64,000 nucleotides of DNA from Micromonospora endolithica (GTDB lineage: Bacteria; Actinomycetota; Actinomycetes; Mycobacteriales; Micromonosporaceae): contig NZ_RBAK01000013.1 of assembly GCF_003626595.1 (NCBI RefSeq), forward strand, positions 62,001 through 126,000. The letters run 5' to 3'. Each line of letters opens with the position of its first letter. Within the stretch, counting starts at the first letter, position 1. This document shows, one piece after another, positions 4,761 through 27,588 of the stretch. The notes beneath the pieces are model-generated. The model saw only the letters and a program-made list of their open reading frames with translations, did no database searches and was not told the origin of the DNA. The position numbers and the translations under genes are program-made.

Positions 4761-5005
4761 TGGCCGGTCAGCCCGACCTGGGGCGAGCTGACCTGGTGAC
4801 CATGCTCGCCGAACTGCACGCGCGACCCGCCGCCGAGGTGCCCGACCGGATCGGCTCGATGGAGCTGGCCTGGCTGGTGCACCTGGTGGAGCAGCGCTAC
4901 GACCGGCAGCTCGACCTCACCGACGACCAGCTCGCCGGCATCCGTACCGTCGACGACGCCCTGGTGGTCTTCCGGACCTCCCTGACCGCTCCCGCAGATG
5001 GCTGA
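4760..5005 (+). CDS. Acyl carrier protein-like protein 2
   Basis: This 81-residue protein sits directly after carrier protein 1 and shares its start with the previous stop. A carrier-like segment RIGSMELAWLV places a candidate phosphopantetheine Ser at residue 33, with GSM in place of the common DSL. Helices before and after match the carrier fold: AELHARPAAEVPDRIG, then LVHLVEQRYDRQLDL and a terminal TVDDALVVF. The 3' end overlaps the next ketosynthase by eight bases. Two different carrier proteins in one operon suggest separate starter and extender or shuttle roles. The divergent motif leaves some chance that it is not modified. Confidence 0.78.
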   Translation: MAGQPDLGRADLVTMLAELHARPAAEVPDRIGSMELAWLVHLVEQRYDRQLDLTDDQLAGIRTVDDALVVFRTSLTAPADG

Positions 5006-6074
5006 GCGGGGGGCCGTCCAGCTCACCGGTGTGCACGCGATCAGCGCCCTCGGCAGGGGAGCCGAGGCGCAGCTCGCCGGTGTGCTCGCCGCGACGCCGG
5101 CCTTCGCGCCGGTGGGCCGCTTCGACACCGGCCCGCGCCGGGTCGACGCCGCCGCGACGCTGCCCGACGTCGGCCGGCTGCCCGACGAACTGGCCGAGGC
5201 GGTCGAGGTCGCCTGCGCCGACGCCGGCCTGAACGCCGCCGGGCGGGCCGGCGCCGCGCTGCTGCTGGCGGTGCACGGCGGTGTCGGGGTGCCGGAGCTG
5301 GCCACCGGGCTGGCGCGGCGCACCGGACTGGGCGGGGGCACCCGTGCGTACACCACCGCCTGTGTGTCGGCGACCAGCGCGGTCGCCGCCGGCGCGGCGC
5401 TGCTCGCCCGCGGCGACCGCGACGCCGTGGTGGTCGCCGCCGGCTACCTGGTGGAGCCCGACCAGTACGCGCTCTTCGACACCGGTCGCGCGCTGGCCAC
5501 CGACGGCGCGGTCCGCCCGTTCAGCGCCGGGCGCACCGGTCTGCTGCTCGGTGACGGCGTGGCGGCGGTGGTGCTGCAACGGGCCCGCTCGGCCCGCGAC
5601 CCGGTGGCCGACCTGCTCGGTTGGGGCCGGACCGGCGACGCGTTCCACCCCTGCCAGCCGGAACCGTCCGGCCGGGGCCTGGCCCGCGCGGCCCGCGCCG
5701 CCCTGGACCGGGCCGGGCTGCCGCCGGAGGCGGTCGGGTACGTCAACGCCAACGCCACCGGCACCGCCGGCAGCGACGCGTCCGAGGCGGCCGCGCTGGG
5801 CGCCGTGTTCGGTGCCGCCGGCGTGCCGGTCAGCTCCACCAAGGCGGTGCACGGGCACGCCCTGGAGGCGTCCGGGCTGCTCGAACTGGTGGTCACCGTG
5901 CAGGTGCTGAGGCACGGCAAGCTGCCGGTCAACGCCGGATGGCGCGGGCCCGACCCGCACTGCCCGGTGGACGTCATCCTCGACGCGCCGCGCCCCGCCG
6001 CGACCCGGTACGCGCTGACCCTGAACGCCGCCTTCGGCGGGGCGAACACCGCCCTGCTGGTCGGTGCGGCGTGA
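4998..6074 (+). CDS. Ketosynthase with altered catalytic triad (Cys-Asn-His)
   Basis: This is a thiolase-fold condensing enzyme of 358 residues, about 50 shorter than a typical KAS II. The nucleophile is present (Cys122 in TTACVSATS), and the second His and its Lys are present (K282 and H287 in KAVHGH). The first His motif, normally NAHGTGT, reads NANATGT, so Asn252 replaces the catalytic His. Such a change should weaken malonyl decarboxylation but allow acyl transfer or a Claisen step of the kind catalysed by Cys-His-Asn enzymes. The start overlaps the carrier protein by eight bases, and the stop overlaps the next gene as GTGA. It may be a starter-loading or acyl-transfer enzyme; that is inference. 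Confidence 0.83.
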   Translation: MAERGAVQLTGVHAISALGRGAEAQLAGVLAATPAFAPVGRFDTGPRRVDAAATLPDVGRLPDELAEAVEVACADAGLNAAGRAGAALLLAVHGGVGVPELATGLARRTGLGGGTRAYTTACVSATSAVAAGAALLARGDRDAVVVAAGYLVEPDQYALFDTGRALATDGAVRPFSAGRTGLLLGDGVAAVVLQRARSARDPVADLLGWGRTGDAFHPCQPEPSGRGLARAARAALDRAGLPPEAVGYVNANATGTAGSDASEAAALGAVFGAAGVPVSSTKAVHGHALEASGLLELVVTVQVLRHGKLPVNAGWRGPDPHCPVDVILDAPRPAATRYALTLNAAFGGANTALLVGAA

Positions 6075-6592: not shown

Positions 6593-8205
6593 GGACCAGG
6601 GGACTGCGCGGCGCACTCGCCGCCGACGACCTGATCGGCGCCGGCAACGTCCTGGCCCGGGTGCTGGCCCACGGGGCCGACCCGGACGCACCCGGACTCA
6701 CCTTCGACACCGCCGTCGACGGGCACCCCGCCGACCACCCGCTCACCCTCGGCCAGCTCGACGAGCGGGTCGCCGCCCGGGTCGCGTGGCTGCACGAACG
6801 CGGGGTGCAGCCACGCGACCCGGTGGCGGTGTGGGCGACCGCCGCCGCCGACATGGTGCTGAGCTTCCTCGCGCTGACCCGGCTGGGCGCGATCCCGGCG
6901 CTGATGAACGGCAAGCTGCGCCCGGAGATCGCTGCCGAGTACATCCGCCGCCTGCGTGGCGTGGGCGTGCTCGCCGACGACGCGCACACCGCCCTGCTCG
7001 CCGGGCACGACCTCGGCGTACCGGTGCTCGGCACGCCCGCCGAGGCGGGCTCCGGCGACCCGGCCGGGGCTCCCGCGCACTACCGGCACCACCCGGACGA
7101 CCCGATCGTCATCACCCACACCTCCGGCACCACCGGCGTGCCCAAGGCGGTGCTGCACTCGCACGCCAGCCTCTTCGCCGCGACCCGGCACCTGCTGTCC
7201 ATGCCGCAGGCGCAGGGCACCACCCGGATCCTCAACGCGCTGCCCGCCCCGCACACCGCCACCGTGCTGATGGTCAACCAGGCGCTGGGCAACTCGGCGG
7301 AGATGTTCCTCCTGTCCGACCAGGGCGGGGAGCAGGTGCTGGACGCGATCCAGCGGTGGCGGCCCGACGGGGTGTTCGGTTTCTCCGTCACCTGGGCGGA
7401 ACTGGCCCGGTTCGACCTGTCCGCGTACGACCTGGACTCGGTGCGCCTGTGGTTCAACACCGGCGACAGCTCGCACGAGCCGCACATCCGGCGCCTGGTC
7501 GCGGTCGGTTCCCGGGACGTGGTGACCCGCCAGGGCATCACCCGGGTACCCGGGTCGGTGTTCATCGACGGGCTCGGCTCCAGCGAGATGGGCCACTCGA
7601 TGTTCCACGTCACGCACACCCGGGACACCGACCGGTACGACCGCTGCATCGGCCGCCCGTACCGGTTCACCTCGGTGGCCGTGCTCGACGCGCACGGCGA
7701 CCCGGTGCCGGCCGGCGAGGTGGGGTGGCTGGGCATCGACTCGCCGTCGCTGTTCCGGGGCTACTGGAACGACTCGGTGACCACCTACCGGTTCCGTCAG
7801 CGCGGCTGGTACCTCACCGGGGACCTGGTGTACGCCGACGACGAGGGCCGGTATTACCACATGGACCGGGCGGTGGACGCGGTCGACGCCGGGGACGGGA
7901 AGCGCTTCTACACCGCGCTGTCCGAGGAACGGGTGCTGGCCGCCTGCCCGGACGTCACCGACTGCACGGTGGTGATACTGCGCGAGGGCGACGCGGTGGT
8001 CACCGACGTGCTGCTGGAACTGGCGGCCGGCGCGGACGAGGCCGAGGACCGCACCGAGCGGGTGCGTGCCGCGCTCGGCGCCGACGTCGGCGCGACCCTG
8101 CGCCGGGTGGTGCCGGTGCGCTCGGACGACATCCCGGTCACCGTGACCGGCAAGGTCCGCAAGGTCGTGCTGCGCGAGCGCTATCTCAGCGAGACGCCGT
8201 CATGA
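6589..8205 (+). CDS. Adenylate-forming acyl-CoA/acyl-ACP ligase 2
   Basis: This 538-residue ANL enzyme has the phosphate loop THTSGTTGVPK at residues 177-187, a signature FIDGLGSSEMGHS in the position of the aromatic-xTE motif, the hinge region YLTGDLVYADDEGRYYHMDR, and the catalytic Lys in TVTGK near residue 522. The motif SSEMG is unusual for this family but keeps the Glu. The gene is coupled to both neighbours by four-base overlaps. Because it lies between ketosynthases and carrier proteins, it probably activates the acid that primes one of the carriers. An aromatic acid such as 4-hydroxybenzoate or an arylacetate is plausible, given the HmaS-like gene downstream, but this is not shown. 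Confidence 0.86.
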   Translation: MRTRGLRGALAADDLIGAGNVLARVLAHGADPDAPGLTFDTAVDGHPADHPLTLGQLDERVAARVAWLHERGVQPRDPVAVWATAAADMVLSFLALTRLGAIPALMNGKLRPEIAAEYIRRLRGVGVLADDAHTALLAGHDLGVPVLGTPAEAGSGDPAGAPAHYRHHPDDPIVITHTSGTTGVPKAVLHSHASLFAATRHLLSMPQAQGTTRILNALPAPHTATVLMVNQALGNSAEMFLLSDQGGEQVLDAIQRWRPDGVFGFSVTWAELARFDLSAYDLDSVRLWFNTGDSSHEPHIRRLVAVGSRDVVTRQGITRVPGSVFIDGLGSSEMGHSMFHVTHTRDTDRYDRCIGRPYRFTSVAVLDAHGDPVPAGEVGWLGIDSPSLFRGYWNDSVTTYRFRQRGWYLTGDLVYADDEGRYYHMDRAVDAVDAGDGKRFYTALSEERVLAACPDVTDCTVVILREGDAVVTDVLLELAAGADEAEDRTERVRAALGADVGATLRRVVPVRSDDIPVTVTGKVRKVVLRERYLSETPS

Positions 8206-9440
8206 CCGCGGTGATCACCGGGATGGGGCTGTTCACCCCGGCCGGTCGGGGCGTCGACGCCACGTTCGACGCGCTGTGCGCCGGCAAGTCCGGGCTGGCC
8301 CGCCCGCCGGAGGACCACCCGGCCGCCGGTTCGCTGGAGGTCGCCGGGGTGCTGCCGGACGTCGACCCGCGTACGGTCGCCTCCGGCCCGGAGGCCAAGG
8401 TGCTGGACCGGATCGTCGTGCTCGCCCTGCACACCGCGGCCGACGCCCTCGCCGACGCCGGCATCGAGGTGGGCCGCGACGTCGACCCGGAGCGGATCGC
8501 GGTGGTCGTCGGCGGGGTGGGCGGTATGGCCACCCTGGAACGGCAGGTGCTGGCCCGGGCCGAACGCGGCCGGGCGGCGGTCAACCCGTACCTGCTCACC
8601 GGGATCCTGCCGAACATGCCGTCGGCGCGGATCGCCATCCGGTTCGGCATCCGTGGCTACAGCTCCTCGGTCGGCACGGCCTGCGCCTCCGGCGCGCAGG
8701 CGGTCGCCGACTCCGTCCGGCTGATCCGGGCCGGCGAGGCCGACGTGGTGCTGTGCGGGGCGAGCGAGGCACCGCTGTTCCCGACCTTCGCCGACACGTT
8801 CGGCAACGCCCGGGCCCTCGCCCGTGGCTGGGACGACCCCACCGCGGCGAGCCGGCCGTTCGACCGGCGCCGCAACGGGTTCGTGCTCGCCGAGGGCGCG
8901 GCGCTGCTGGTCCTGGAACGCGCCGAGCACGCGGCGGCCCGGGGCGCGACCGGGTACGCCGAGGTCGCCGGGTACGGGGTGACCACCGACGCGTACCACC
9001 CGACGGCCCCGCGCCCGGACGGCGCCGGCGCGGCCGGTGCCATGCGCCGCGCCCTCGCCGCCGGTGGGGTGCCCGCCGCCCGGGTCGGCTACGTCAACGC
9101 GCACGGCACCGGCACCAAGCTCGGTGACATCGCCGAGACCACCGCGCTGGGCGACGTCTTCGGCGTCGGCGGGGTGCCGGTCAGCTCCACCAAGGCGCTC
9201 ACCGGCCACCTGCTCGGCGCGTCCGGGGTGCTGGAGGCGGCGGTGACCGCGCTGGCGCTGGGCCGGGGGCTGCTGCCGCCGACGTACAACCTGGACGAGG
9301 TGGACCCGGCGTGTCCGGCGGACCACATCCGCGCCGAGCCGCGGCCGACCGACGCGGCGTACGCGCTCACCAACTCCTTCGGGTTCGGCGGCCAGAACGT
9401 GAGCCTGCTGCTCGCGCGGGCCGCCCGAGCCCGCGGGTGA
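8202..9440 (+). CDS. Beta-ketoacyl synthase (canonical KAS II type)
   Basis: This is a complete condensing enzyme of 412 residues, carrying out decarboxylative condensation of malonyl-ACP with an acyl primer. All catalytic elements are visible: Cys161 in GTACASGAQAV, His301 in NAHGTGT, and Lys331 with His336 in KALTGHLLGASG; the C-terminal NSFGFGGQN loop is also present. The ATG at 8202 overlaps the ligase stop (ATGA). It is the only ketosynthase in the window with an intact triad, so it is the likely chain-extending enzyme for the two carrier proteins. It could work alone or pair with one of the inactive KS-like proteins. Confidence 0.92.
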   Translation: MTAVITGMGLFTPAGRGVDATFDALCAGKSGLARPPEDHPAAGSLEVAGVLPDVDPRTVASGPEAKVLDRIVVLALHTAADALADAGIEVGRDVDPERIAVVVGGVGGMATLERQVLARAERGRAAVNPYLLTGILPNMPSARIAIRFGIRGYSSSVGTACASGAQAVADSVRLIRAGEADVVLCGASEAPLFPTFADTFGNARALARGWDDPTAASRPFDRRRNGFVLAEGAALLVLERAEHAAARGATGYAEVAGYGVTTDAYHPTAPRPDGAGAAGAMRRALAAGGVPAARVGYVNAHGTGTKLGDIAETTALGDVFGVGGVPVSSTKALTGHLLGASGVLEAAVTALALGRGLLPPTYNLDEVDPACPADHIRAEPRPTDAAYALTNSFGFGGQNVSLLLARAARARG

Positions 9441-9475
9441 CGACACCACCGGCAACGACGACCACGGGGGGAACT

Positions 9476-10582
9476 GTGGGAAGGGCTGGGACATTGGACA
9501 TCCGTGGGATAGACCACATCGAACTCTACGTGGGGGACGCCCGGCAGGCCGCCTTCTACTTCTGCCGGGCGGTCGGCTTCGGACTGCTCGGGCAGGGCGG
9601 ACCGGAGACCGGGCTGGCCGGGCAGCGGTCGCTGCTGCTGGGACAGGCCGACATCCGGATGGTGCTGACCTCCGGGCTCAGCGCCGATCACCCGGCGTCG
9701 CGCTACGTGCAACGGCACGGCGACGGCATCGCCGTGGTGGCCCTGGAGGTCGACGACGTCGCCGGGGCGTACGCGCGGCTGTGCGACCGGGGGGCGGTCG
9801 GGCTGACGCCGCCGACCACCTTCACCGGCGCGGACGCCGAGGTGGTCACCGCCGAGGTGGGGGGCTTCGGCGACGTGGTGCACCGGCTGGTGCAGCGGCG
9901 CGGCGACCGGCGCGACTTCCTGCCCGGCGTGATCGAGGCGGTCCCCGCCGACGGTGACGCCGACGGGGTGCTCGCCGAGATCGACCACCTGGCGGTCTGC
10001 GTGCCGCCGGGGCAACTGGCGGCCACGGTCCGGCAGTACCGGGAGGTGTTCGGCTTCGCCGAGATCTTCACCGAACGGATCGAGGTCGACGGGCAGGCGA
10101 TGAACTCGACCGTCGTGCAGAGCCCGTCGGAGCGGGTGACCCTGGTGCTGCTGGAGCCGGATGCCACCGGCCGGGCGGGGCAGATCGACGCGTTCCTCGA
10201 CCAGCACGCGGGGGCCGGGGTGCAGCACCTGGGCCTGCGTACCGACGACATCGTGACCGCGGTGGAGACGCTCGGCCGGCGCGGGGTGCGCTTCGCCGGC
10301 ACCCCGGGCAGCTACTACGACGCGCTGGAGGACCGGGTCGGTCGGGTGGACGGGCAGGTGGAGCGGCTGCGTGACCTCGGGGTCCTGGTCGACCGGGACC
10401 ACGGCGGGCAACTGCTGCAGATCTTCACCGAGTCGATGCACGTGCGCCGGACGCTGTTCCTGGAGCTGATCGAACGCCGTGGGGCGCGGACCTTCGGCAG
10501 CGGCAACATCAAGGCGCTGTACGAGGCCAAGGAACGGGAGCTGGCCGCCGCCGCGGCGGTGCCGCAGGGGGTGCCGGCATGA
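9476..10582 (+). CDS. hmaS: 4-Hydroxymandelate synthase / HPPD family dioxygenase
   Basis: This Fe(II) enzyme has two vicinal-oxygen-chelate domains and acts on 4-hydroxyphenylpyruvate. The metal ligands are H171 (IDHLAV), H251 (QHLGL) and E330 (LFLELIERRG), followed by the C-terminal GSGNIKALYEA. Spacings of 80 and 79 residues agree with those I recall for glycopeptide-cluster HmaS. Where homogentisate-forming HPPDs have a PxN motif (PLNEP), this protein has VLLEP, which removes the Asn and favours 4-hydroxymandelate formation. The GTG at 9476 follows GGGGGGA. At 368 residues it is close to HmaS length. It is coupled to the PhyH gene by a four-base overlap. With the oxidase and aminotransferase at 24.2-27.6 kb it completes a 4-hydroxyphenylglycine-type pathway. 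An ordinary HPPD remains possible. Confidence 0.8.
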   Translation: MGRAGTLDIRGIDHIELYVGDARQAAFYFCRAVGFGLLGQGGPETGLAGQRSLLLGQADIRMVLTSGLSADHPASRYVQRHGDGIAVVALEVDDVAGAYARLCDRGAVGLTPPTTFTGADAEVVTAEVGGFGDVVHRLVQRRGDRRDFLPGVIEAVPADGDADGVLAEIDHLAVCVPPGQLAATVRQYREVFGFAEIFTERIEVDGQAMNSTVVQSPSERVTLVLLEPDATGRAGQIDAFLDQHAGAGVQHLGLRTDDIVTAVETLGRRGVRFAGTPGSYYDALEDRVGRVDGQVERLRDLGVLVDRDHGGQLLQIFTESMHVRRTLFLELIERRGARTFGSGNIKALYEAKERELAAAAAVPQGVPA

Positions 10583-11508
10583 CCACGACGGAGTTCTCGC
10601 CGACCCTGACCGCCGCGGAGGAGGCGCTGCTGCCCACCGACGCCGACGTGGCGTTCTACGCCGAGCACGGCTGGTACCTGTCGGAGAAGCTGCTCACCGA
10701 CGACGAGGTGGACGCGCTGGCCGCCGCGGCCGAGCGCTACTACGCCGGCGAGCGGGCCCGCCGGCTGCCGGTACGCCCGCCGAAGCTGGCCTACTGGGAG
10801 CCGGAGAAGGGCGACGTGCAGCGGCACAACGACTACGTGCACCACGAGCACGACGGGCTGGCGGCGATCCTGCGCAAGCCGCTGATCGGCGCGGTCGCCG
10901 CCCGGCTGGCGAAAGCCACCGAGATCCGGATCTTCCAGTCCACGCTGATCCGCAAGCCGCCGATCTCCGGCGAGCCGTCGAACATCGTGCCCTGGCACTT
11001 CGACAAGCACTACTGGGCGTCGTCGTCGTCGGAGGACATGCTCACCGCGTTCATCCCGTTCCACGACTGCGGGGAGGAGATGGGCACGATCACCATGGTC
11101 GACGGCTCGCACCGGTGGAGGGAGATCGGCGCGGACGACACCGTGGTGCGGCACTTCGCCGAGCGGGACCGCGACCAGCTGGAGGAGATGCTGGCCGAGA
11201 ACGCCGCGTACAACGGTGCGTCGATCCGCAAGGTGCCGATGGTCATCCCCAAGGGACACATGAGCTTCCACCACTGCCGCACCTACCACGGCAGCGGCGC
11301 GAACGTCAGCGGCCGACCCCGCAACGCGATCTCGCTGCACCTTCAGGACGGCGACAACGCCTGGCGGGAGTACCCGCTCTCCGACGGCACCGTCGCCGCG
11401 TACAACCACGACGTGCTGGTCCGCCGCACCCACGACGGGCGGCCGGACTACGCGGACCCCGAATACTGCCCGGTCATCTGGCGCGACCGCGCCCAGCAGG
11501 GAGGCTGA
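10579..11508 (+). CDS. Phytanoyl-CoA dioxygenase (PhyH) family Fe(II)/2-oxoglutarate oxygenase
   Basis: This 309-residue protein has the double-stranded beta-helix iron site: H140 and D142 in PWHFDKHYW, and the distal H237 in RTYHGSG, with an Arg a few residues later (GRPRNA) to hold 2-oxoglutarate. PhyH enzymes hydroxylate, desaturate or rearrange small molecules and carrier-bound chains. The gene starts inside the stop of the HmaS-like gene and ends one base before the DUF3050 gene, so the three are made together. It is expected to oxidise an aromatic or acyl intermediate of this pathway. The exact reaction cannot be deduced. Confidence 0.87.
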
Positions 11509-11509
11509 C

Positions 11510-12301
11510 ATGTCACGGTACGACTGGGGTAAGACCCACCCGGGGATCGAGCGGCTGGAGAAGGCGGTGACCGACCGCCGGGACGTGGTGGTGCGGCACC
11601 CGCTCTACGCCAACCTGGACACGCACGAGGCGCTGGTCACGTTCATGGAGCACCACGTCTTCGCGGTCTGGGACTTCATGTCCCTGCTGAAGTCGTTGCA
11701 GCGGCAGCTCACCTGCGTCACCGTGCCGTGGATCCCGACCGGACCGACCGGCAGCCGGCGGCTCATCAACGACATCGTGATGGTCGAGGAGAGCGACGAG
11801 CTGGGCGAGGGCTACATCAGCCACTTCGAGCTGTACGTGCAGGGCATGACCGAGGCCGGCGCGGACACCACGGCGGTGGAGAAGCTGATCGACCTGCTGC
11901 GCGCCGGCCGGCCGGTCACCGACGCGCTGACCGAGGCCGGTGTGCCCGGACCGTCGGCGGCGTTCGCCGCGACCACCTGGCGGATCATCGAGACCACCCC
12001 GGTGCACTGCCAGGCCGCCGCGTTCGCGTTCGGCCGGGAGGACCTGATCCCGGACATGTTCACCCAGGTCGTCGCCGTCAACGAGCGCAGCCAGAAGCTG
12101 CACAAGTTCGTCGACTACCTGGAGCGGCACATCGAGGTCGACGGCGAGCAGCACACCCCGATGGCGATGCAGATGCTCGCCGACCTCTGCGGCGACGACG
12201 ACGCCAAGTGGCAGGAGTGCGCGGACACCGTCAACACCGCGCTCGCCGCCCGGGCGAAGCTCTGGGACGACATCCTGGCCGCGATCAAGGGTCGCGGGTG
12301 A
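11510..12301 (+). CDS. DUF3050 protein, candidate haem-oxygenase-like di-iron oxidase
   Basis: The 263-residue, all-helical protein matches the DUF3050 pattern: HPLYANL, then [17 protein letters not shown], a conserved EESDE and HFELY. Candidate metal residues are E47, E94, H105 and a later cluster H207-x3-D211-x3-H215 in [11 protein letters not shown], which resembles the ExxH-type sites of haem-oxygenase-like di-iron oxidases. Members of that superfamily make nitro groups, alkenes or cleave C-C bonds; DUF3050 itself has no function I can name. It lies between the PhyH gene and E1alpha with a one-base gap and a four-base overlap. Its position argues for a dedicated tailoring step. Family assignment is firm, metal use and reaction are inference. 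Confidence 0.78.
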
Positions 12302-13266
12302 CCGACCCCGAGGAGGTCCGGCTCTACCGGACGGTCCGGCTGATCCGCCGCTTCGAGGAGCGCGCGATCGGCCTGGTCCGTTCCGGGCACATCGTCGGCG
12401 GCATCCACCCGTACCTCGGTCAGGAGGGGATCGCCGCCGGCGTGTGCGCCGCGTTGCGCGCCGACGACGTGGTGGCCGGCACCCACCGTGGGCACGGGCA
12501 CGTGCTCGCCAAGGGTGCCGACCCGGCCCGGATGCTCGCCGAGCTGTGCGGCCGGGAGAACGGGCTGAACCGGGGCCGGGGCGGGTCGATGCACGCCGCC
12601 GACTTCGGCGTCGGCGTGCTCGGCGCGAACGCCATCGTCGGCGCCTCCGGGGCGATCATGACCGGTGCGGTGTGGGCGGCCCGCCGCCGCGGCGGCGACG
12701 TCGTCGGGGTGAGCTTCTTCGGCGACGGCGCGGTCAACGAGGGCATGCTGCTGGAGGCGTTCAACCTGGCCGCGCTGTGGCGGGTGCCGGTGCTGTTCGT
12801 CTGCGAGAACAACGGCTACGCCACCACCATGCCGGTCGACGGCGCGGTGGCCGGCACCATCACCGGCCGGGCCGAGGCGTTCGGCATGCCGGCGTCCGTC
12901 GTGGACGGCCAGGACCCCGAGGCGGTACGCGCGGTCACGGCCGCCGCCGTCGCGCGGATGCGCGCCGGCGGCGGCCCGGAGCTGATCGAGGCCCGCACCT
13001 ACCGCTTCGACGCGCACCACACCTTCGAACACGCGGTACGCCTGGACTACCGCCCGCCGGACGAGGTGGCCCGGGGCCGGTCCCGGGACCCGGTGGAGAT
13101 CGCCGGGGCGCGGCTGTCCGACGCCGACCGGGCGGCGGTGGACGCCGAGGTCGAGACGACGCTCGACGCGGCGGTGGAGTTCGCCCTGGCCGGGCCGGAG
13201 CCGGACCCGGCCGACGCGCTGGCGTACCTCTACGCCAGCGGCCTGACCGCCCGGGGAGGTGGCTGA
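12298..13266 (+). CDS. 2-Oxoacid dehydrogenase E1 alpha subunit (TPP), cluster copy
   Basis: This 322-residue protein is the alpha subunit of a thiamine-diphosphate 2-oxoacid decarboxylase. The TPP/Mg motif runs from GDGAVNEG through LFVCENN, and THRGHGH and GGSMH are typical of the E1alpha of acetoin/pyruvate-type complexes. The GTG start overlaps the DUF3050 stop, and the E1beta gene follows with no gap. No E2 or E3 gene is in this cluster. Similar free E1 pairs (PglB/PglC) are used in phenylglycine biosynthesis of streptogramin producers to turn an aryl-2-oxoacid into an acyl thioester. Here the substrate may be an arylpyruvate or arylglyoxylate from the HmaS/Hmo branch; this is inference. 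Confidence 0.87.
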
Positions 13267-14238
13267 ATGCCGAGGTTGTCCTACCGCAGGGCGCTGACCC
13301 GGGCGCTCGCCGACGAGATGACCCGCGACCCCGACGTGTTCCTGCTCGGCGAGGACATCCGGGTCGCCGCGTCCAACGTCACCGCCGGGTTGCTCAAGCG
13401 GTTCGGCCCCGACCGGGTTCTGGACACCCCGCTGTCCGAGCAGGCGTTCACCAGCTTCGCCACCGGCGCGGCGCTGCTCGGCACGCGACCGGTGATCGAG
13501 TTCCAGATCCCCTCGCTGCTGTTCCTGGTCTTCGAGCAGATCGTCAACCACGCGCACAAGTTCCCGCTGATGACCGGTGGGCAGTGCGCGGTGCCGGTGA
13601 CCTACCTGGTGCCCGGCTCCGGCTCGCGGACCGGGTGGGCGGGGCAGCACTCCGACCACCCGTACAGCCTCTTCGCCCACGTCGGGGTGACCACCGTGGT
13701 GCCGGCCACCCCGGCCGACGCGTACGGGCTGCTGGTGTCGGCGGTGCGCTGCGACGACCCGGTGGTGGTGTTCGCGCCGGCCGGGGCGATGGAGGTCCGC
13801 GCCGATGTGGACCTCGCCGCGCTGGTCCCGGTGCCGCTGGGCCGGGGCCGGGTGCACCGGGCCGGCGACGACGTGACCGTGGTCGCCGTCGGCCACCTGG
13901 TGCACGACGCCCTCGCCGTCGCCGAGGACATCGCCGACCAGGTGTCGGTGGAGGTGTTCGACCCCCGCACGCTGTACCCGTTCGACTGGGACGGCCTGTG
14001 GGAGTCGGTGTCGCGCACCGGCCGGCTGGTGGTGGTGGACGACTCCAACCGTGCCTGCGGCATCGGCGCCGAGGTGATCGCGGGGGTGGTGGAGCGGGTG
14101 CGGCTGGTCGCGCCGCCGCGCCGGGTGACCCGCCCGGACGGCGCGGTGCTGCCCTTCGCCCCGGCGCTGGACCGGGCCGTGCAGCCGGGCCGGGAGCAAC
14201 TGCGTGCGGCCATTCAAAACGTGATGAAGGACGGGTGA
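13267..14238 (+). CDS. 2-Oxoacid dehydrogenase E1 beta subunit, cluster copy
   Basis: This 323-residue partner of the preceding E1alpha shows the expected LSYRRALTRALADEM start, the GEDI motif, the DTPLSEQAF segment, and the C-terminal transketolase domain with VVDDSNRACGIGAEV. It begins directly at the E1alpha stop with a GGAGGTGG ribosome site inside the E1alpha end. It forms the alpha2beta2 decarboxylase that produces hydroxyalkyl-TPP and passes the acyl group to a lipoyl or thiol acceptor. The segment GTRPVIEFQIPSLLF differs from the same stretch of the branched-chain E1beta at 39270 (GLRPVVEMQFDAFAY). The two are therefore paralogues of different specificity. Confidence 0.88.
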   Translation: MPRLSYRRALTRALADEMTRDPDVFLLGEDIRVAASNVTAGLLKRFGPDRVLDTPLSEQAFTSFATGAALLGTRPVIEFQIPSLLFLVFEQIVNHAHKFPLMTGGQCAVPVTYLVPGSGSRTGWAGQHSDHPYSLFAHVGVTTVVPATPADAYGLLVSAVRCDDPVVVFAPAGAMEVRADVDLAALVPVPLGRGRVHRAGDDVTVVAVGHLVHDALAVAEDIADQVSVEVFDPRTLYPFDWDGLWESVSRTGRLVVVDDSNRACGIGAEVIAGVVERVRLVAPPRRVTRPDGAVLPFAPALDRAVQPGREQLRAAIQNVMKDG

Positions 14239-14241
14239 GAC

Positions 14242-15600
14242 ATGCTCGACGTCGACTACCGCTGGCCGTCGGCCGCGCAGCCCTGGCTCGACCTGCCCGC
14301 CGACGTCCGCGCCGACATGGTGGCCGCCGGGGCGCGGTCCTGGCGGGAGGTCTTCGACGGGCGGGCCACGTACAACAAGCAGTGGCGGCTGGCCCGGCCC
14401 CCGGTGATGGACGAGACCACGCTCGGCGTGCTCAACGCGGTCTGTGACCGGCTGGCACAACTGATCTTCGAGGCGTGCCGGCGGCGGGCGGGCACGGCGG
14501 GGGAGCTGCGGCGACTGCTGCGGGTGCCGGACGGCGAGACCCGGCTGCTGGACGACGACGAGCCGCTGACCGAGGCGCTGCTGGACGCGTTCCGCCCGGA
14601 CGTGCTGCTCTCCGACGGGGTGCCCAAGGTGGTGGAGTACAACATCGACTCCAGCCTCGGCGGGGCGTTCGACGCGGACACCACCGTGCGCCGGTTCGTC
14701 GACGTCTACCGGCGGCACGGCCTCACCGAGCGGATCCGCCTGGCGGCGGCGCCGTCGGCGGTGGACCGGCGGTTCGCCGCGATCCGCGCCGGGCTCGGCC
14801 TGCCCGACGGGGCGCGGGTGGCCATGCTGATCGACTTCGACGCCGAGTACCCCGGGCTGGACGACCCGGAGCGCTTCTTCCGGCTGCTCACGCCGGTGGT
14901 CGACCGGGCCGCCGTGTTCGGCCTGGACCTGGTCATCGCGCCGGTCTCCCAGGTGACCCTGGACGACCAATCCCGGCTGGTGGTGCGCGGCGGGCCGGTC
15001 GACGGGGTGTTCCGGCTGTTCGTGCCCAACCGGGTCACCCCCAGCGCCGGGGTGGACGCCCTGGAGGCGGCGCTGGCCGCCGGCACGGTGCCGATGTGGG
15101 TGTCCGCCGCCGCGTGGCTGATCGCGAACAAGGCCGCGTTCGCCTGGCTCTGGGACGACGCCGGCGACCTGCCGGCCGCCGACCGGGACCTGGTGCACCG
15201 GTACGTGCCGCAGACCTGGATGTTGACGCCGGACCTGGTGGACCGGGCGATCGTCGAGCAGCGCGACCTGGTGGCGAAACCGTCGGACGGCTCCGCCGGG
15301 GTCGACGTGCTGGTCGGCCGGGCGTGCGACGCCGACACGTGGGCCGGCGGGGTGCGGCGGGCCGCCGACCGGGGCGGGTTCATCCTCCAGCGGTACGTGA
15401 AGGCCGACGACGTCCCGCTGGACTTCGTGCACATCGAGACCGGCGACACGGTCTCCGCGGACGTCCCCTACAGCATCGCGCCGTACCTGTTCGGCCGCGA
15501 ACCGGCCGGTGCCTGCATCCGGACCGGCTTCCCCGGCTGCGACGCCGTGCTCAACCTCGCCCGCGGCGTCCTCCTCTCCGGCCTCCTGGTGGTCGACTGA
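14242..15600 (+). CDS. ATP-grasp-like carboxylate-amine ligase
   Basis: This 452-residue protein looks like a circularly permuted or glutathionylspermidine-synthase-like ATP-grasp enzyme. Visible elements are VVEYNIDSSLGG (131-141), a Lys in VAKPSDGSAGVDV (K346) matching the ATP-binding KPxxGxxG strand, and ILQRYV (381-386) before the metal-binding region. Such enzymes form amide or ester bonds between a carboxylate and an amine with ATP. It is the last gene of the operon, three bases after E1beta. In this setting it could couple the arylglycine made by HmaS, oxidase and aminotransferase to another acid. A long hairpin follows it. Confidence in the fold is moderate; the substrates are unknown. 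Confidence 0.68.
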   Translation: MLDVDYRWPSAAQPWLDLPADVRADMVAAGARSWREVFDGRATYNKQWRLARPPVMDETTLGVLNAVCDRLAQLIFEACRRRAGTAGELRRLLRVPDGETRLLDDDEPLTEALLDAFRPDVLLSDGVPKVVEYNIDSSLGGAFDADTTVRRFVDVYRRHGLTERIRLAAAPSAVDRRFAAIRAGLGLPDGARVAMLIDFDAEYPGLDDPERFFRLLTPVVDRAAVFGLDLVIAPVSQVTLDDQSRLVVRGGPVDGVFRLFVPNRVTPSAGVDALEAALAAGTVPMWVSAAAWLIANKAAFAWLWDDAGDLPAADRDLVHRYVPQTWMLTPDLVDRAIVEQRDLVAKPSDGSAGVDVLVGRACDADTWAGGVRRAADRGGFILQRYVKADDVPLDFVHIETGDTVSADVPYSIAPYLFGREPAGACIRTGFPGCDAVLNLARGVLLSGLLVVD

Positions 15601-23001: not shown

Positions 23002-24228
23002 ATGACCGACGTTGCACAGGTGCTGACCCGTCTCTACAGCGACGCGGGTCGGCAGGATCCGTATCCCTGCTACGCCGACCTGCACGCCCTCGGCCCGGTC
23101 AGCCCGGTGCCGGCGCGCGCCGAGCACCGGGCGGTCGCCGCGGTCGCCGTCGGCTACGAGCTGGTCGACCGGATCCTGCGGGACCCGCGGTGGTACAAGC
23201 AGCCGCCGCCGGGCTGGCAGGACCAGGAGGTGCTGCGCACGTTGCAGACCTCGATGATGTTCGTCAACCCGCCGGACCACACCCGGATGCGGGGCGTGTT
23301 CGCCAAGACCTTCACCCCGCGCCGGATGGGCGCCCTGGAGCCGGTCGTGCACCGGGTGGTCGACGGCCTGCTGGACCGGATGGCCGACGCCGGCGATGCC
23401 GAGGTCGACTTCGTGGCCGAGTTCGCGTACCCGATGCCCGCCCTGGTGATGGCGGAGTTCATCGGCATCCCCGCGGGTGAGCTGGACTTCTACCGGCAGC
23501 GGGTGGAACGGATCGACGAGTTCCTGGACGTGGCCGGCAAGACCCCGGAACGCCTGGCCGCCGCCAACACCGCCGCCGCCGAGCTGCGGGCCTTCTACCG
23601 GGACCTGCTGGCCCACCGCCGGCGGACCCCCGGCGAGCACCTGATCAGCGCCCTGGTCGAGGCGGTCGACGCCGGGGACGTGGAGCTGACCGAGGACGAG
23701 CTGATCAGCAACCTGGTGGTGCTGTTCAACGCGGCGTTCGTCACCACCGTCTACATGTTCAGCAACGGCCTGCCGCTGCTGCTGGAGCACCCGGAGGTGG
23801 CCGCGGCGCTGCCCGGCGACGACGCGCTGACCCGGGGCGCGGTGGACGAGATCCTCCGGCTGGAGGCGCCGGTGCACTTTCTGGCCCGCGCCGCGCCGGA
23901 GGACACCGACCTCGACGGGGTGCCGGTCGGGCGGGACGAGAACGTCCTGCTGATGATCGCCGGGGCCAACCGCGACCCGTCCCGCTTCGCCGACCCGGAC
24001 CGCTTCGACCCGCGCCGCGCCGGCCCGCCGTCGCTGGCGTTCGGCGCCGGTGCGCACTACTGCATCGGGGCGGCGGTCTCCCGGCTGGAGGGCCGGCTGG
24101 CGCTGCCCCGGCTGCTCGACCGCTTCCCAGGCCTGGCCGTGTCCGAGGCGCCCACCTTCAGCGGCAGCCTCTTCCTGCGCGGCGTCGACAAACTCCTGGT
24201 CAGCACCGGAACGGGGGAGCGGCCGTGA
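23002..24228 (+). CDS. Cytochrome P450
   Basis: This 408-residue P450 has the haem-binding loop FGAGAHYCIG (Cys354), the ExxR motif EILR (E283-R286) and the N-terminal PPDHTRMR segment. The I-helix oxygen-activation motif is abnormal. Where most bacterial P450s read AGxET or AGxDT, this one reads AAFVTT (244-249), so the acidic residue is Val and the usual Gly is Ala. Such changes are known in P450s with unusual proton delivery or peroxide use. The ATG follows CTGGGGAGA. The stop overlaps the fusion gene by four bases. It probably oxidises an aryl or acyl intermediate of this cluster. Confidence 0.9.
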   Translation: MTDVAQVLTRLYSDAGRQDPYPCYADLHALGPVSPVPARAEHRAVAAVAVGYELVDRILRDPRWYKQPPPGWQDQEVLRTLQTSMMFVNPPDHTRMRGVFAKTFTPRRMGALEPVVHRVVDGLLDRMADAGDAEVDFVAEFAYPMPALVMAEFIGIPAGELDFYRQRVERIDEFLDVAGKTPERLAAANTAAAELRAFYRDLLAHRRRTPGEHLISALVEAVDAGDVELTEDELISNLVVLFNAAFVTTVYMFSNGLPLLLEHPEVAAALPGDDALTRGAVDEILRLEAPVHFLARAAPEDTDLDGVPVGRDENVLLMIAGANRDPSRFADPDRFDPRRAGPPSLAFGAGAHYCIGAAVSRLEGRLALPRLLDRFPGLAVSEAPTFSGSLFLRGVDKLLVSTGTGERP

Positions 24229-26270
24229 CCCTGCACCCGCAGGCGGCGGCGTACCGGGACGCCCGCGCGGCGTCCGGCGTCCCGCCGCTGTACACCCAGA
24301 CCCTCGCCGAGGCCCGCGCCGCCGACCTCGCCGCGATCCGCGCCGGCGGCGGCGCGGTCGAGCCGGTGCACGAGGTACGCGACACGCACGTCCCCGGTCC
24401 GGCCGGCGACCTGCCGGTACGGATCCACCGGCCGGCGGGGCAGGGGCGGCTGCCCACCCTGCTCTACTTCTTCGGCGGGGGCTGGACGCTGGGCAGCGTG
24501 GACACCGCCGACGGGATCTGCCGCCGGCTGGCCAACGCGGTGCCCTGCCAGGTGATCACCGTCGGCTACCGGCTCGCCCCCGAGCACCCCTTCCCGGCCG
24601 CCGTGCACGACTGCCACGCCGCCGCCCGGTGGATCGCCGCGCACCCGGACGAGTTCGGCGTCGACCCGGAGCGGATCGCGGTCGGCGGGGACAGCGCGGG
24701 GGGCAACCTCGCCGCCGCGGTGACCCTGCTGGCCCGGGACACCGGAGCGCCCCGGCTGGCCGCACAACTGCTCGTCTACCCGAACACCGACCAGAGCGCC
24801 GAGCCGACCGGCGACGACGACCCGGCGCTGTTCAACCGCCGCTCGGTGGCGTGGTACCGGGGCCACTACCTCGCCGACGCCGCCGACGCCCGGCATCCCC
24901 TCGCCTCGCCGCTGCTCGCCACCGACCTGGCCGGCCTGCCCCCGGCGCTGGTGGTCACCGCCGAGCACGACCCGCTGTGCCCGGAGGGGGAGCGGTACGC
25001 CCACCGGCTGCGCGACGCCGGCGTGCCGACCGTGCTGAGCCGGTACGCCGGCATGGTGCACGGCTTCTTCGCCATGCCCGGCGTCTTCGACGACGCCCAC
25101 CGGGCCCAGACCGAGGCCGCCACCTTCCTCCGCGCCCACCTCCACCCCGACCCCGCCCCGCTCGCGGGCGGGCAGGGCGGCGCCGGGGACGGCGGTGCGG
25201 TCGGGTTGGCCGACTTCGCGGAGCTGGCGCGGGCCGTGCTTCCCGCGCCGGTGTGGGACTACGTGGCCGGCGGCAGCGGCGCGGAGACCACCCTGGCGGC
25301 GAACCGGCGTGCCCTGGACCGGGTCGGTGTGCTGCCCCGGATGCTGCGCGGCGTGCACACCCCGAGCACCGCCGCGCGGCTGCTCGGCGCCAGCCACGCC
25401 CTGCCGGTGGCGGTCGCGCCGATGGCGTACCAGCGACTGCTGCACCCCGACGGCGAGCTGGCCCTGGCCGCGGCGGCCGGCGCGGCCGGCGTGCCGTACG
25501 TGGCGAGCACGCTGAGCAGCGAACCGATCGAGCGGATCGCCGGAGCCGGCGGCGAGGTGTGGTTCCAGCTCTACTGGCTGCGCGACCGGGGACTGGTCGC
25601 CGACCTGCTGGACCGGGCGCACGCGGCCGGCTGCACCGCGCTCACCGTCACCGTGGACGTGCCGGTCCTCGGCCGCCGGCTGCGCGACCTGCGCAACGGC
25701 TTCGCCCTTCCCCCGGACGTGCACGCCGCGAACCTGCCGGCCGGACGGGACGATCTCGCGCACCACGGCACCCCCGGGGTGTCCGCCGTCGCCGCGCACA
25801 CCCACGAGGTCTTCGCCCCGGCACTGACCTGGGCGGACCTGGAGTGGCTGCGGGCGCGTACGCCGCTGCCGCTGGTGGTGAAGGGGGTGCTGGACCCGCG
25901 CGACGCGGTCCTCGCGGCGGACGCCGGCGCGGACGCGGTGGTGGTGTCCAACCACGGCGGACGGCAACTCGACGGCGCGCCGCCCGCCGCCGCCGCGCTG
26001 CCCGAGGTGGTCGACGCCGTCGGCGACCGGTGCGAGGTGCTGCTGGACAGCGGGATCCGGAGCGGGACCGACGTGCTGCGTGCCCTCGCCCTCGGCGCGC
26101 ACGGCGTGCTGGTCGGCCGGCCGCTGCTCTTCGCCCTCGCCGTCGGGGGTCGGGCCGGTGCCGACACCGCGCTGGCGCTGCTCGCCGCCGAGCTGACCGA
26201 CGCGCTCACCCTGGCCGGCTGCGCCGACCCGGCCGCCGCCCGTGACCTGCGCACGGTGCCGGTGGACTGA
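24225..26270 (+). CDS. Alpha/beta-hydrolase fused to FMN-dependent 2-hydroxyacid oxidase
   Basis: One frame of 681 residues holds two enzymes. Residues 1-308 form a hormone-sensitive-lipase-type hydrolase with nucleophile S157 in GGDSAGGN, D249 in AEHDP and H279 in MVHGFF; its oxyanion HGGG motif is FGGG (83-86). Residues 325-681 form an alpha-hydroxyacid oxidase with APMAY, FQLYW, TVDVPVLGRR, K553 in VVKGV, catalytic H577 and R580 in SNHGGRQ, and the phosphate site DSGIRSG. The oxidase half matches hydroxymandelate oxidase (Hmo), which turns hydroxymandelate into arylglyoxylate. The linker is Gly/Ala-rich. The hydrolase may release a thioester, as the thioesterase PglD does in phenylglycine synthesis. 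Both halves are intact, so the fusion looks functional. Confidence 0.88.
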   Translation: MTLHPQAAAYRDARAASGVPPLYTQTLAEARAADLAAIRAGGGAVEPVHEVRDTHVPGPAGDLPVRIHRPAGQGRLPTLLYFFGGGWTLGSVDTADGICRRLANAVPCQVITVGYRLAPEHPFPAAVHDCHAAARWIAAHPDEFGVDPERIAVGGDSAGGNLAAAVTLLARDTGAPRLAAQLLVYPNTDQSAEPTGDDDPALFNRRSVAWYRGHYLADAADARHPLASPLLATDLAGLPPALVVTAEHDPLCPEGERYAHRLRDAGVPTVLSRYAGMVHGFFAMPGVFDDAHRAQTEAATFLRAHLHPDPAPLAGGQGGAGDGGAVGLADFAELARAVLPAPVWDYVAGGSGAETTLAANRRALDRVGVLPRMLRGVHTPSTAARLLGASHALPVAVAPMAYQRLLHPDGELALAAAAGAAGVPYVASTLSSEPIERIAGAGGEVWFQLYWLRDRGLVADLLDRAHAAGCTALTVTVDVPVLGRRLRDLRNGFALPPDVHAANLPAGRDDLAHHGTPGVSAVAAHTHEVFAPALTWADLEWLRARTPLPLVVKGVLDPRDAVLAADAGADAVVVSNHGGRQLDGAPPAAAALPEVVDAVGDRCEVLLDSGIRSGTDVLRALALGAHGVLVGRPLLFALAVGGRAGADTALALLAAELTDALTLAGCADPAAARDLRTVPVD

Positions 26271-26271
26271 G

Positions 26272-27588
26272 GTGACCCCCGACCTGCGCCTGACCGACCT
26301 GCACCCGGCGCTGGACGACCCGGCGCTGACCTCGATGAACTTCCTCAACGAGGTGGCACAGCGCTACCCGGACGCGGTGTCGTTGGCCGCCGGCCGCCCG
26401 TACGAGGAGTTCTTCGACGTCGCCACCCTGCACCGGCACCTGGACCGGTTCCGGCGGCACCTGGCCGAGGACCTCGGGCAGAGCCCGACGCAGGTGCACC
26501 GGACGCTGTTCCAGTACGGCCGGACCAAGGGCATCGTGCACCACCTGGTGACCCGCAACCTGGCCGTGGACGAGGGGATCACCGTCGACGACGAGGCGGT
26601 GGTGGTGACCGTCGGCTGCCAGGAGGCGATGTTCCTGGTGCTGCGGGCGCTGCGGGCCACGCCCCGGGACGTGCTGCTCGCCGTCGCCCCCACCTACGTC
26701 GGGCTGACCGGCGCGGCCCGGCTGCTGGACCTGCCGGTACGGCCGGTGGCCGGTGGACCGGCCGGCGTCGACCTGGCCGACCTGCGGGTACAGGTGCACC
26801 GGGCCCGCGCCGAGGGGCTGCGCCCGCGGGCCTGCTACGTGATGCCGGACTTCGCCAACCCGTCCGGGGCGAGCATCGACGTGGCCGGCCGGCGGCGGCT
26901 GCTCGACCTGGCCGCCGAGGAGGACCTGCTGCTGCTGGAGGACAACCCGTACGGCCTCTTCCCGGCCGGCGACGGCGACCGGCCGCCCACCCTCAAGGCG
27001 CTGGACACCGCGCGAAGGGTGGTCTACCTCGGGTCGTTCGCCAAGACGGTGCTGCCCGGCGCCCGGGTCGGGTACGTGGTGGCCGACCAGCGGGTGGGTG
27101 CCCCGGACGGCACCGTCGGCCTGCTCGCCGACCAGCTCGCGAAGATCAAGAGCATGGTCACGGTGAACACCTCGGCGCTGGCCCAGGCGGTGGTCGGCGG
27201 CGCGTTGCTGGAGCACGGGTGCAGCCTGGTCGCCGCCACCGTCCGGGAGCGGGCCGCGTACACCCGGAACCTGCGCCACCTGGTCGCCGGCCTGGCCCGG
27301 CGGTTCGGCGACGCCGGGCCGGTGCGGTGGAACGTCCCGGCCGGCGGCTTCTTCGTGGTGGTGACCGTGCCGTTCGGTGTGGACGACGCGCTGCTGGACC
27401 GCTCGGCCCGGGAGTACGGGGTGCTGTGGACGCCGATGGCGCACTTCTACGACGACGGGGCCCCGGTCGACGCCCTGCGCCTGTCGGTCAGCGCGGTCAC
27501 CCCGGCGGAGATCGACAGGGGCCTGGACCGGCTCGCCGCCCTGGTCGCCGACGAACTCACCCGCCGGGTCGGCACGGCCGTGCGATGA
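26272..27588 (+). CDS. PLP-dependent aminotransferase, arylglycine (HpgT) type
   Basis: This 438-residue fold-type I aminotransferase has the PLP Lys258 in SFAKTVLPGARVGYV, N196 in DFANPSG, and D224 in LEDNPYG. The start region (LAAGRPYEEFFD, then FQYGRTKG) resembles the HpgT/PglE and MocR-like aminotransferase group, in which HpgT converts 4-hydroxyphenylglyoxylate to 4-hydroxyphenylglycine. I chose the GTG at 26272, one base after the fusion-gene stop, because the frame upstream lies within that gene. It follows an oxidase that makes the expected 2-oxoacid, so an arylglycine aminotransferase role is a strong inference. Use of other aromatic 2-oxoacids is possible. Confidence 0.85.
   Translation: MTPDLRLTDLHPALDDPALTSMNFLNEVAQRYPDAVSLAAGRPYEEFFDVATLHRHLDRFRRHLAEDLGQSPTQVHRTLFQYGRTKGIVHHLVTRNLAVDEGITVDDEAVVVTVGCQEAMFLVLRALRATPRDVLLAVAPTYVGLTGAARLLDLPVRPVAGGPAGVDLADLRVQVHRARAEGLRPRACYVMPDFANPSGASIDVAGRRRLLDLAAEEDLLLLEDNPYGLFPAGDGDRPPTLKALDTARRVVYLGSFAKTVLPGARVGYVVADQRVGAPDGTVGLLADQLAKIKSMVTVNTSALAQAVVGGALLEHGCSLVAATVRERAAYTRNLRHLVAGLARRFGDAGPVRWNVPAGGFFVVVTVPFGVDDALLDRSAREYGVLWTPMAHFYDDGAPVDALRLSVSAVTPAEIDRGLDRLAALVADELTRRVGTAVR

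What the first reader, a model, noticed from the sequence alone, without database searches (positions are those of the whole stretch)
24225..26270. Natural fusion of an alpha/beta-hydrolase to a hydroxymandelate-oxidase-like enzyme
Both halves keep their catalytic residues and are joined by a short Gly/Ala linker in one frame. Linking ester or thioester cleavage to 2-hydroxyacid oxidation suggests channelling: the hydrolase frees an aryl hydroxyacid (or arylglyoxylate) from a thioester next to the FMN site. The oxyanion motif HGGG is changed to FGGG, which may alter the hydrolase.
Basis: partly seen in the sequence, partly recalled or inferred. Interest (0 to 1): 0.7.

Follow-up and report, generated by a model that had tools for sequence, protein, structure and literature searches.

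The report
One-strain fusion of two neighbouring enzymes
In one Micromonospora-type genome two neighbouring enzyme genes of a hydroxyphenylglycine-making cluster, separate in the relatives examined, have run together into one long gene; it looks real but is probably a minor, strain-specific event with no sign of channelling.

Summary
Window 24225-26270 (+) is one open frame of 681 codons: an Abhydrolase_3 hydrolase joined to an FMN-dependent oxidase, catalytic residues kept. The oxidase half is a 4-hydroxymandelate oxidase (Hmo; best solved relative 5zzp). A 4-hydroxymandelate-synthase gene (HmaS) lies about 14 kb upstream and an HpgT-like aminotransferase directly downstream: the known 4-hydroxyphenylglycine cassette. 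The fusion is unique in the data: 1 of 160 genus genomes, no other in capped samples of 394 class and 396 phylum genomes, and none of 81 distinct same-strand pairs in relatives is in frame. There the genes mostly overlap by 8 nt (commonest ATGGCTGA: hydrolase stop, oxidase start). The window's spacer has lost that stop and start; no frame of it holds a stop, so one base error cannot hide two genes. FGGG is not a new mutation: 88 of 88 orthologue rows have it. Channelling is not supported: HmaS yields free hydroxymandelate, Hmo occurs without the hydrolase, and the linker is predicted disordered. Best reading: a lineage-specific fusion of two translationally coupled genes whose halves act on different steps. 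The hydrolase tracks HmaS (91 of 95 genomes with both halves, 0 of 33 with oxidase only); its substrate is unknown.

The parts
24225..26270 (+). fused gene: alpha/beta-hydrolase + 4-hydroxymandelate oxidase, 681 aa, GTG start
   Evidence: fusion not seen in relatives
24225..25133 (+). hydrolase half (residues 1-303): Abhydrolase_3, YFFGGGW, GDSAG, D249, H279
   Evidence: NCBIfam LipP1 360.9 bits, cut-off 350; Est8 4ypv best
25134..25205 (+). 72-nt linker (24 aa, residues 304-327) that replaces the ancestral stop/start; no stop in any frame, no ATG
   Evidence: (pLDDT <50 at residues 310-325)
25206..26270 (+). oxidase half (residues 328-681): FMN_dh, 4-hydroxymandelate oxidase (Hmo)
   Evidence: (5zzp, E 1.3e-112)
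23002..24228 (+). cytochrome P450, its stop overlapping the fusion's start by 4 nt (GTGA); start codon chosen by eye
26272..27588 (+). HpgT-like class I/II aminotransferase, starts 1 nt after the fusion's stop (start inferred)
   Evidence: most relatives align only from about residue 8-14 of the longer ORF
9440..10582 (+). 4-hydroxymandelate synthase (HmaS), stretch searched; exact start not fixed
   Evidence: 2r5v PCZA361.1 best, E 5.5e-90; NCBIfam names it 4HPPD, 346.9 bits, cut-off 277
10579..11508 (+). phytanoyl-CoA-dioxygenase-like enzyme, overlaps the HmaS stop
12298..14238 (+). pyruvate-dehydrogenase-E1-like alpha and beta subunits (beta by Pfam/NCBIfam; alpha by sequence reading and conserved position)
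   Evidence: alpha was given to NCBIfam in a wrong frame (see Tried and rejected)

Best explanation
A lineage-specific gene fusion. The ancestor had two adjacent, translationally coupled genes of a 4-hydroxyphenylglycine (Hpg) biosynthetic cluster: an Abhydrolase_3-family hydrolase and a stand-alone Hmo, overlapping head to tail in different frames. In the window's lineage the spacer lost the hydrolase stop and the Hmo start, and its length became a multiple of three, so ribosomes now read through. The product is one chain with two independently folded domains on a flexible linker. The Hmo domain oxidises 4-hydroxymandelate (from HmaS) to 4-hydroxyphenylglyoxylate, which the HpgT-like aminotransferase turns into Hpg. 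The hydrolase domain acts as an esterase-type enzyme on another, unidentified intermediate of the same cluster. The fusion mainly replaces translational coupling by covalent 1:1 expression and is roughly neutral. Shown: the fusion, its uniqueness in the genomes searched, the separate state of relatives, the cassette, conservation of active sites. Inferred: order of events, substrates, neutrality.
For: Separate genes: of 99 loci holding both halves, 96 separate on one strand, 2 on opposite strands, 1 fused; without identical copies 81, 2 and 1 of 84. Spacer length between fixed anchors is never a multiple of 3 in 81 distinct relatives (mod 1: 66, mod 2: 15) but is 72 nt here. Genus search: 160 genomes, only the window's gives a full-length match (1490 bits; next 611). 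Class sample of 394 (E <= 1e-100, best 3 candidates per genome scored) and phylum sample of 396 (1e-75, best 2 scored): no second full-length match. Overlap of exactly 8 nt in 56 of 84 pairs (copies not removed); the very string ATGGCTGA ends 34 of the 81 distinct hydrolase genes. Both halves show the same constraint as 10 hand-picked unfused relatives among themselves (mean pN/pS 0.416 vs 0.383 hydrolase; 0.391 vs 0.390 oxidase). Hmo identity. HmaS in 91 of the 95 other genus genomes with both halves. AF2: domains confident, linker disordered, pTM 0.58.
Against: Only one draft genome shows it; no reads or second isolate could be checked, and near-identical records may have been left out of the genome-contig scan (note). 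Three Salinispora spacers (L038, L065, L088: 73 nt) differ in length from the window's by one base, so a one-base step may be part of the history. Neutrality is inferred from constraint, not tested. The hydrolase tracks HmaS more closely than the oxidase does and sits beside Hmo and the aminotransferase in Micromonospora, Salinispora and most Kribbella loci, so a functional link is likely and the fusion could be mildly useful.
Confidence: 0.8

Rival explanations
1. Channelling enzyme: the hydrolase frees an aryl hydroxyacid or arylglyoxylate from a (thio)ester and hands it to the FMN site of the same chain.
For: Both active sites intact; the genes are neighbours in most relatives; an arylglycine cluster surrounds them; the hydrolase co-occurs with HmaS.
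Against: HmaS supplies free 4-hydroxymandelate in the same cluster (reaction from established knowledge). No relative examined is fused. Hmo is a single gene in HmaS-Hmo loci that show no match to this hydrolase in the fetched stretch. The linker is predicted disordered and the domain arrangement undefined, pTM 0.58.
Confidence: 0.06
2. Pgl-like thioesterase role for the hydrolase, fused or not (not exclusive of the best explanation): PDH-like E1 alpha/beta makes an arylacetyl thioester, an oxygenase oxidises it and the hydrolase releases the arylglyoxylate, in parallel with pristinamycin PglB/C, PglA, PglD, PglE.
For: In Labedaea (L098) and Actinophytocola oryzae (L111) the order is PhyH-(DUF3050)-E1a-E1b-hydrolase, like pglA-B-C-D; the Pgl route with a PDH-like pair and a thioesterase is described in passages of PMC7089894 and PMC10685826.
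Against: HmaS makes the route redundant. A 64%-identical PhyH enzyme also sits in a HmaS-Hmo-PhyH-aminotransferase operon with no E1 gene annotated nearby in S. angustmyceticus, so it need not act on an E1-made thioester.
Confidence: 0.12
3. Sequencing or assembly error that hides two separate genes.
For: A single draft genome (39 contigs), a G+C-rich spacer, and a one-base length difference from three Salinispora spacers.
Against: No stop codon in any frame and no ATG in the spacer; shifting the frame by one base would drive the hydrolase frame hundreds of bases into the oxidase gene (stops at 25513 or 26243) instead of restoring a stop/start pair. More than one error would be needed.
Confidence: 0.05

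Closest known systems
4-hydroxymandelate oxidase Hmo (PDB 5zzp/5zzq; source organism Amycolatopsis orientalis is recalled)
   Same: FMN half: best sequence match (E 1.3e-112) and best structure match (5zzq, TM 0.95 on the target, 58% identity); catalytic residues kept, including the Tyr of QLYW that is Phe in the Y128F mutant (alignment; start of the abstract of PMC6778850 in the listing)
   Different: stand-alone enzyme; here fused to a hydrolase
HmaS-Hmo-HpgT cassette for 4-hydroxyphenylglycine
   Same: all three genes present; same trio in Streptomyces loci L120, L121, L122, L136 and in L114, L115; HmaS-Hmo in the Nonomuraea gerenzanensis locus that carries vanY-N (L119; no aminotransferase match in that stretch)
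   Different: genes spread over 18 kb, no NRPS module among the genes searched, extra PDH E1-like, KS, PhyH, DUF3050 and hydrolase genes
Est8 (4ypv) / LipP1-type hormone-sensitive-lipase family, Abhydrolase_3
   Same: fold, GDSAG, Asp, His; Est8 best solved relative; passes NCBIfam LipP1 cut-off
   Different: oxyanion motif FGGG instead of HGGG in 88 of 88 orthologue rows; substrate unknown
PglB/C-PglA-PglD-PglE phenylglycine pathway (pristinamycin; passages read in PMC7089894, PMC10685826)
   Same: PDH-like pair, an oxygenase, a hydrolase and an aminotransferase occur together
   Different: HmaS and Hmo present; no Pgl sequence was compared; no CoA step shown

Membership tests
4-hydroxymandelate oxidase (Hmo) | FMN_dh fold with catalytic Tyr/Lys/His/Arg | tested here: met
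   Y450, K553, H577, R580 invariant in 117 of 117 rows (catalytic roles recalled)
4-hydroxymandelate oxidase (Hmo) | closest characterised relative is an Hmo | tested here: met
   5zzp first by sequence, 5zzq first by structure
4-hydroxymandelate oxidase (Hmo) | co-occurs with HmaS | tested here: met
   HmaS in the window and in 91 of 95 other genus genomes with both halves; but in 0 of 33 that hold the oxidase only
4-hydroxymandelate oxidase (Hmo) | oxidises 4-hydroxymandelate | not testable with these tools
   needs an assay
Hpg biosynthesis cassette | HmaS, Hmo and HpgT-type aminotransferase together | tested here: met
   the aminotransferase is 60% identical to one beside a type III PKS and enoyl-CoA hydratases in S. 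cellulosae (L123); that this is HpgT's usual company is recalled
Hpg biosynthesis cassette | an NRPS that uses Hpg | tested here: inconclusive
   stand-alone AMP-binding and carrier-protein genes, no NRPS module among the 20 stretches given to Pfam; the cluster may extend beyond the window
HSL / LipP1-type hydrolase (Abhydrolase_3) | GDSAG nucleophile elbow and Ser-Asp-His triad | tested here: met
   (one orthologue, L098, has GDSSG)
HSL / LipP1-type hydrolase (Abhydrolase_3) | HGGG oxyanion motif | tested here: not met
   FGGG in the window and in 88 of 88 orthologue rows; so filed only as an Abhydrolase_3-fold hydrolase, not as a LipP1 lipase, although it passes that model's cut-off
Pgl thioesterase (PglD) | homology to PglD and action on benzoylformyl-CoA | not tested
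   no PglD sequence on hand; literature passages only
conserved hydrolase-Hmo fusion protein family | same two-domain architecture in other genomes | tested here: not met
   none besides the window

The most novel reading that the evidence does not exclude
The fusion is adaptive: tethering the FGGG hydrolase to Hmo couples release of an aryl-hydroxyacid or arylglyoxylate from a carrier- or CoA-bound intermediate, made by the cluster's E1-like and PhyH-like enzymes, to Hmo oxidation. The strain would then have a bifunctional shortcut to arylglycine that the unfused relatives perform as a transient complex.
Probability: 0.06. Interest if true: 0.55.

Novelty: new variant of a known kind. Interest (0 to 1): 0.22.

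Why it matters
As a fusion it is a clean natural example of how an overlapping, translationally coupled gene pair becomes a two-domain enzyme through changes at the stop/start, with 81 distinct unfused pairs to compare. It does not reveal a new enzyme class. The wider point is that the hydrolase with its conserved FGGG motif, and the hydroxyphenylglycine cluster it belongs to, are common in this genus (HmaS in 95 of 160 genomes) while the hydrolase's substrate and the end product were not identified here.

Tried and rejected
Frameshift or sequencing error: rejected because no frame of the spacer holds a stop and no ATG is present. FGGG as a fusion-linked mutation: rejected, 88/88 rows. Conserved two-domain family: rejected; the class and phylum searches scored only the best 3 and 2 candidates per genome at E <= 1e-100 and 1e-75, so a more distant or independent fusion could be missed. 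I first thought from 16 junctions that a 4-nt loss explains the fusion; spacers vary from 22 to 295 nt, so the exact change cannot be reconstructed and I withdraw that detail (it stands in notebook entry 1).

The first alignment for the structure job (A1) laid oxidase rows on hydrolase columns; it was discarded and replaced by A3 (17 rows) after a test in a script. In one search the script's label 'frameshift' means 'different reading frame', not an error. The E1 alpha stretch given to NCBIfam and translated was out of frame by my mistake; its lack of a hit means nothing. The hydrolase query was also cut out of frame (4 stops), so the hydrolase identities printed there are too low and some hydrolases are missed; searches use the right piece. 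One search took the number of matches as a sign of one or both halves and misfiled at least G130, G153, G036, G061 and G165; it is replaced, typed by hand from the genome rows (oxidase and HmaS at E <= 1e-120, hydrolase at 1e-90). In one search, 10 genomes without a match and the lowest match rows were not listed; a fused gene would rank at the top, so the fusion count is not affected. Literature: searches showed no such fusion in the rows listed (0 to 20 rows each, of up to 2,686 papers); passages of PMC7089894 and PMC10685826 were read, PMC6778850 only as a listing with the start of its abstract.
Full report
OBSERVATION. The reported frame is real: GTG at 24225, TGA ending at 26270, 681 aa. 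Pfam finds Abhydrolase_3 (residues 79-282) and FMN_dh (335-671), both far above cut-off. The gene is coupled on both sides: the upstream P450 stop overlaps its start (GTGA), and the aminotransferase probably starts 1 nt after its stop.

IS THE FUSION REAL AND HOW COMMON. The window lies in a 7-Mb genome of 39 contigs; the named genomes with the most similar genes are Micromonospora and Salinispora. One genome-contig scan (best 80 of 180 relatives kept) plus genome-search loci gave 99 loci with both halves: 96 separate on one strand, 2 on opposite strands, 1 fused (the window). Without identical copies this is 81, 2 and 1 of 84. An earlier count on 112 loci was 82 separate and 1 fused, with 27 loci lacking a match for one or both halves and 2 with the halves not adjacent on one strand. 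In 56 of 84 pairs (copies not removed) the oxidase starts inside the last 8 nt of the hydrolase; the string ATGGCTGA itself ends 34 of the 81 distinct hydrolase genes, close variants most of the others. Between two fixed anchors the spacer measures 22-295 nt in 81 distinct pairs and is never a multiple of three; in the window it is 72 nt. Whole-genome searches gave a full-length in-frame match only in the window's genome: 1 of 160 genus genomes (second-best match 611 bits against 1490), and no other in a class sample of 394 and a phylum sample of 396; those two samples were searched at strict E-values with only 3 and 2 candidates scored per genome. No plasmid record covers 80% of the query. 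In rough trees both halves sit among unfused Micromonospora/Salinispora genes (hydrolase node support 0.76, oxidase 0.89), so separate genes are most likely ancestral and the fusion derived.

AGAINST AN ARTEFACT. From 25100 to 25240 no frame holds a stop and there is no ATG; only GTG 25195 (other frame), TTG 25206 and GTG 25236 could start the oxidase. A one-base error in the spacer would therefore not give back two genes, but would drive the hydrolase frame into the oxidase gene as far as 25513 or 26243. More than one error would be needed. Reads were not available.

THE TWO HALVES. Oxidase: best solved relative is the 4-hydroxymandelate oxidase of PDB 5zzp (E 1.3e-112); the model's best fold match is mandelate oxidase with (S)-4-hydroxymandelate bound (5zzq). 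Y450, K553, H577 and R580 are invariant in 117 of 117 rows. Hydrolase: best solved relative Est8 (4ypv); NCBIfam LipP1 at 360.9 bits for a cut-off of 350. S157, D249 and H279 are invariant, and so is FGGG, in 88 of 88 orthologue rows; a 43%-identical paralogue in the same genome has HGG (L002). FGGG is thus an old subfamily trait. Constraint on both halves is like that among 10 hand-picked unfused relatives. The AlphaFold model (17-row alignment, mean pLDDT 87.7; the other four models 62.5-76.7) shows two mostly confident domains, a disordered linker at 310-325 and pTM 0.58: nothing fixes the domains against each other.

SURROUNDINGS. Upstream lie a 4-hydroxymandelate synthase (2r5v best; NCBIfam's broader 4HPPD model also fits), a phytanoyl-CoA-dioxygenase-like enzyme, DUF3050, PDH-E1-like subunits, KS, carrier-protein and AMP-binding genes. 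The aminotransferase downstream is 60% identical to one that in S. cellulosae stands next to a type III PKS and enoyl-CoA-hydratase genes (L123), the usual company of HpgT (recalled). HmaS-Hmo-aminotransferase trios with no match to this hydrolase in the fetched stretch (4 to 41 kb) occur in L120, L121, L122, L114, L115 and, annotated, in S. angustmyceticus plasmid p1 (hppD, alpha-hydroxy acid oxidase, PhyH, aminotransferase, transporter, prephenate dehydrogenase; an annotated alpha/beta hydrolase about 14 kb away gave no match to ours at 1e-8). So the oxidase half is the Hmo of an Hpg cassette and needs no hydrolase.

CO-OCCURRENCE IN THE GENUS (from; 160 genomes). Apart from the window's, 95 genomes hold both halves and 91 of these hold HmaS; 33 hold the oxidase only and none of these holds HmaS; 3 hold the hydrolase only (1 with HmaS); 28 hold neither (2 with HmaS). 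The hydrolase therefore follows HmaS more closely than the oxidase does. This speaks for a role of the hydrolase in the HmaS pathway, but not for a tether to Hmo. Elsewhere the hydrolase also occurs with no Hmo match in the fetched locus (L111 of 20.9 kb, L116 of 3.9 kb).

MECHANISM. HmaS turns 4-hydroxyphenylpyruvate into free 4-hydroxymandelate, Hmo oxidises it, and the aminotransferase makes Hpg (established pathway; only sequence evidence here). The hydrolase is probably an esterase-type enzyme of the same cluster with another substrate. In L098 and L111 it directly follows the E1 alpha/beta genes, which recalls pglB-pglC-pglD, where a thioesterase releases phenylglyoxylate (passages of PMC7089894). 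I keep that as a rival. Channelling within the fused chain has no support beyond adjacency and co-occurrence.

VERDICT. Real, unique in the data searched, derived, probably of little functional consequence. New variant of a known kind, low interest.

Noticed in passing
window about 2434-27588: A biosynthetic cluster (HmaS, PhyH, DUF3050, E1 alpha/beta, KS genes, AMP-binding enzymes, P450, hydrolase, Hmo, aminotransferase) whose parts recur in Micromonospora, Salinispora, Kribbella, Actinophytocola and Labedaea loci; HmaS in 95 of 160 genus genomes. The rows listed by the literature searches showed no description of its product.
   Followed up: partly
L035 9983-11068 and 33 genus genomes: Hmo kept without HmaS and without the hydrolase in 33 of 160 genus genomes, under constraint in the 10 loci tested (mean pN/pS 0.289). 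What it oxidises there is unclear; a few of these genomes also carry fragments of the cluster (G109 aminotransferase piece).
   Followed up: partly
G006, G089, G036, G061, G014: The hydrolase matches only over residues 1 to about 177-201 in one frame; in G036 the rest follows as a separate match: broken hydrolase genes or assembly errors.
   Followed up: no
window 4998-6074 and 8202-9440: Two FabF-type ketosynthase genes that also match the cispentacin AmcF model (below its cut-off).
   Followed up: no
L136 17726-24372 (S. angustmyceticus plasmid p1): Compact run HmaS-Hmo-PhyH-aminotransferase-DMT transporter-prephenate dehydrogenase with no NRPS gene listed in the 41-kb stretch: perhaps a free Hpg-derived amino acid product.
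   Followed up: no
window 14242-15600: 452-aa protein without Pfam or NCBIfam match, found in the same place in many relatives.
   Followed up: no
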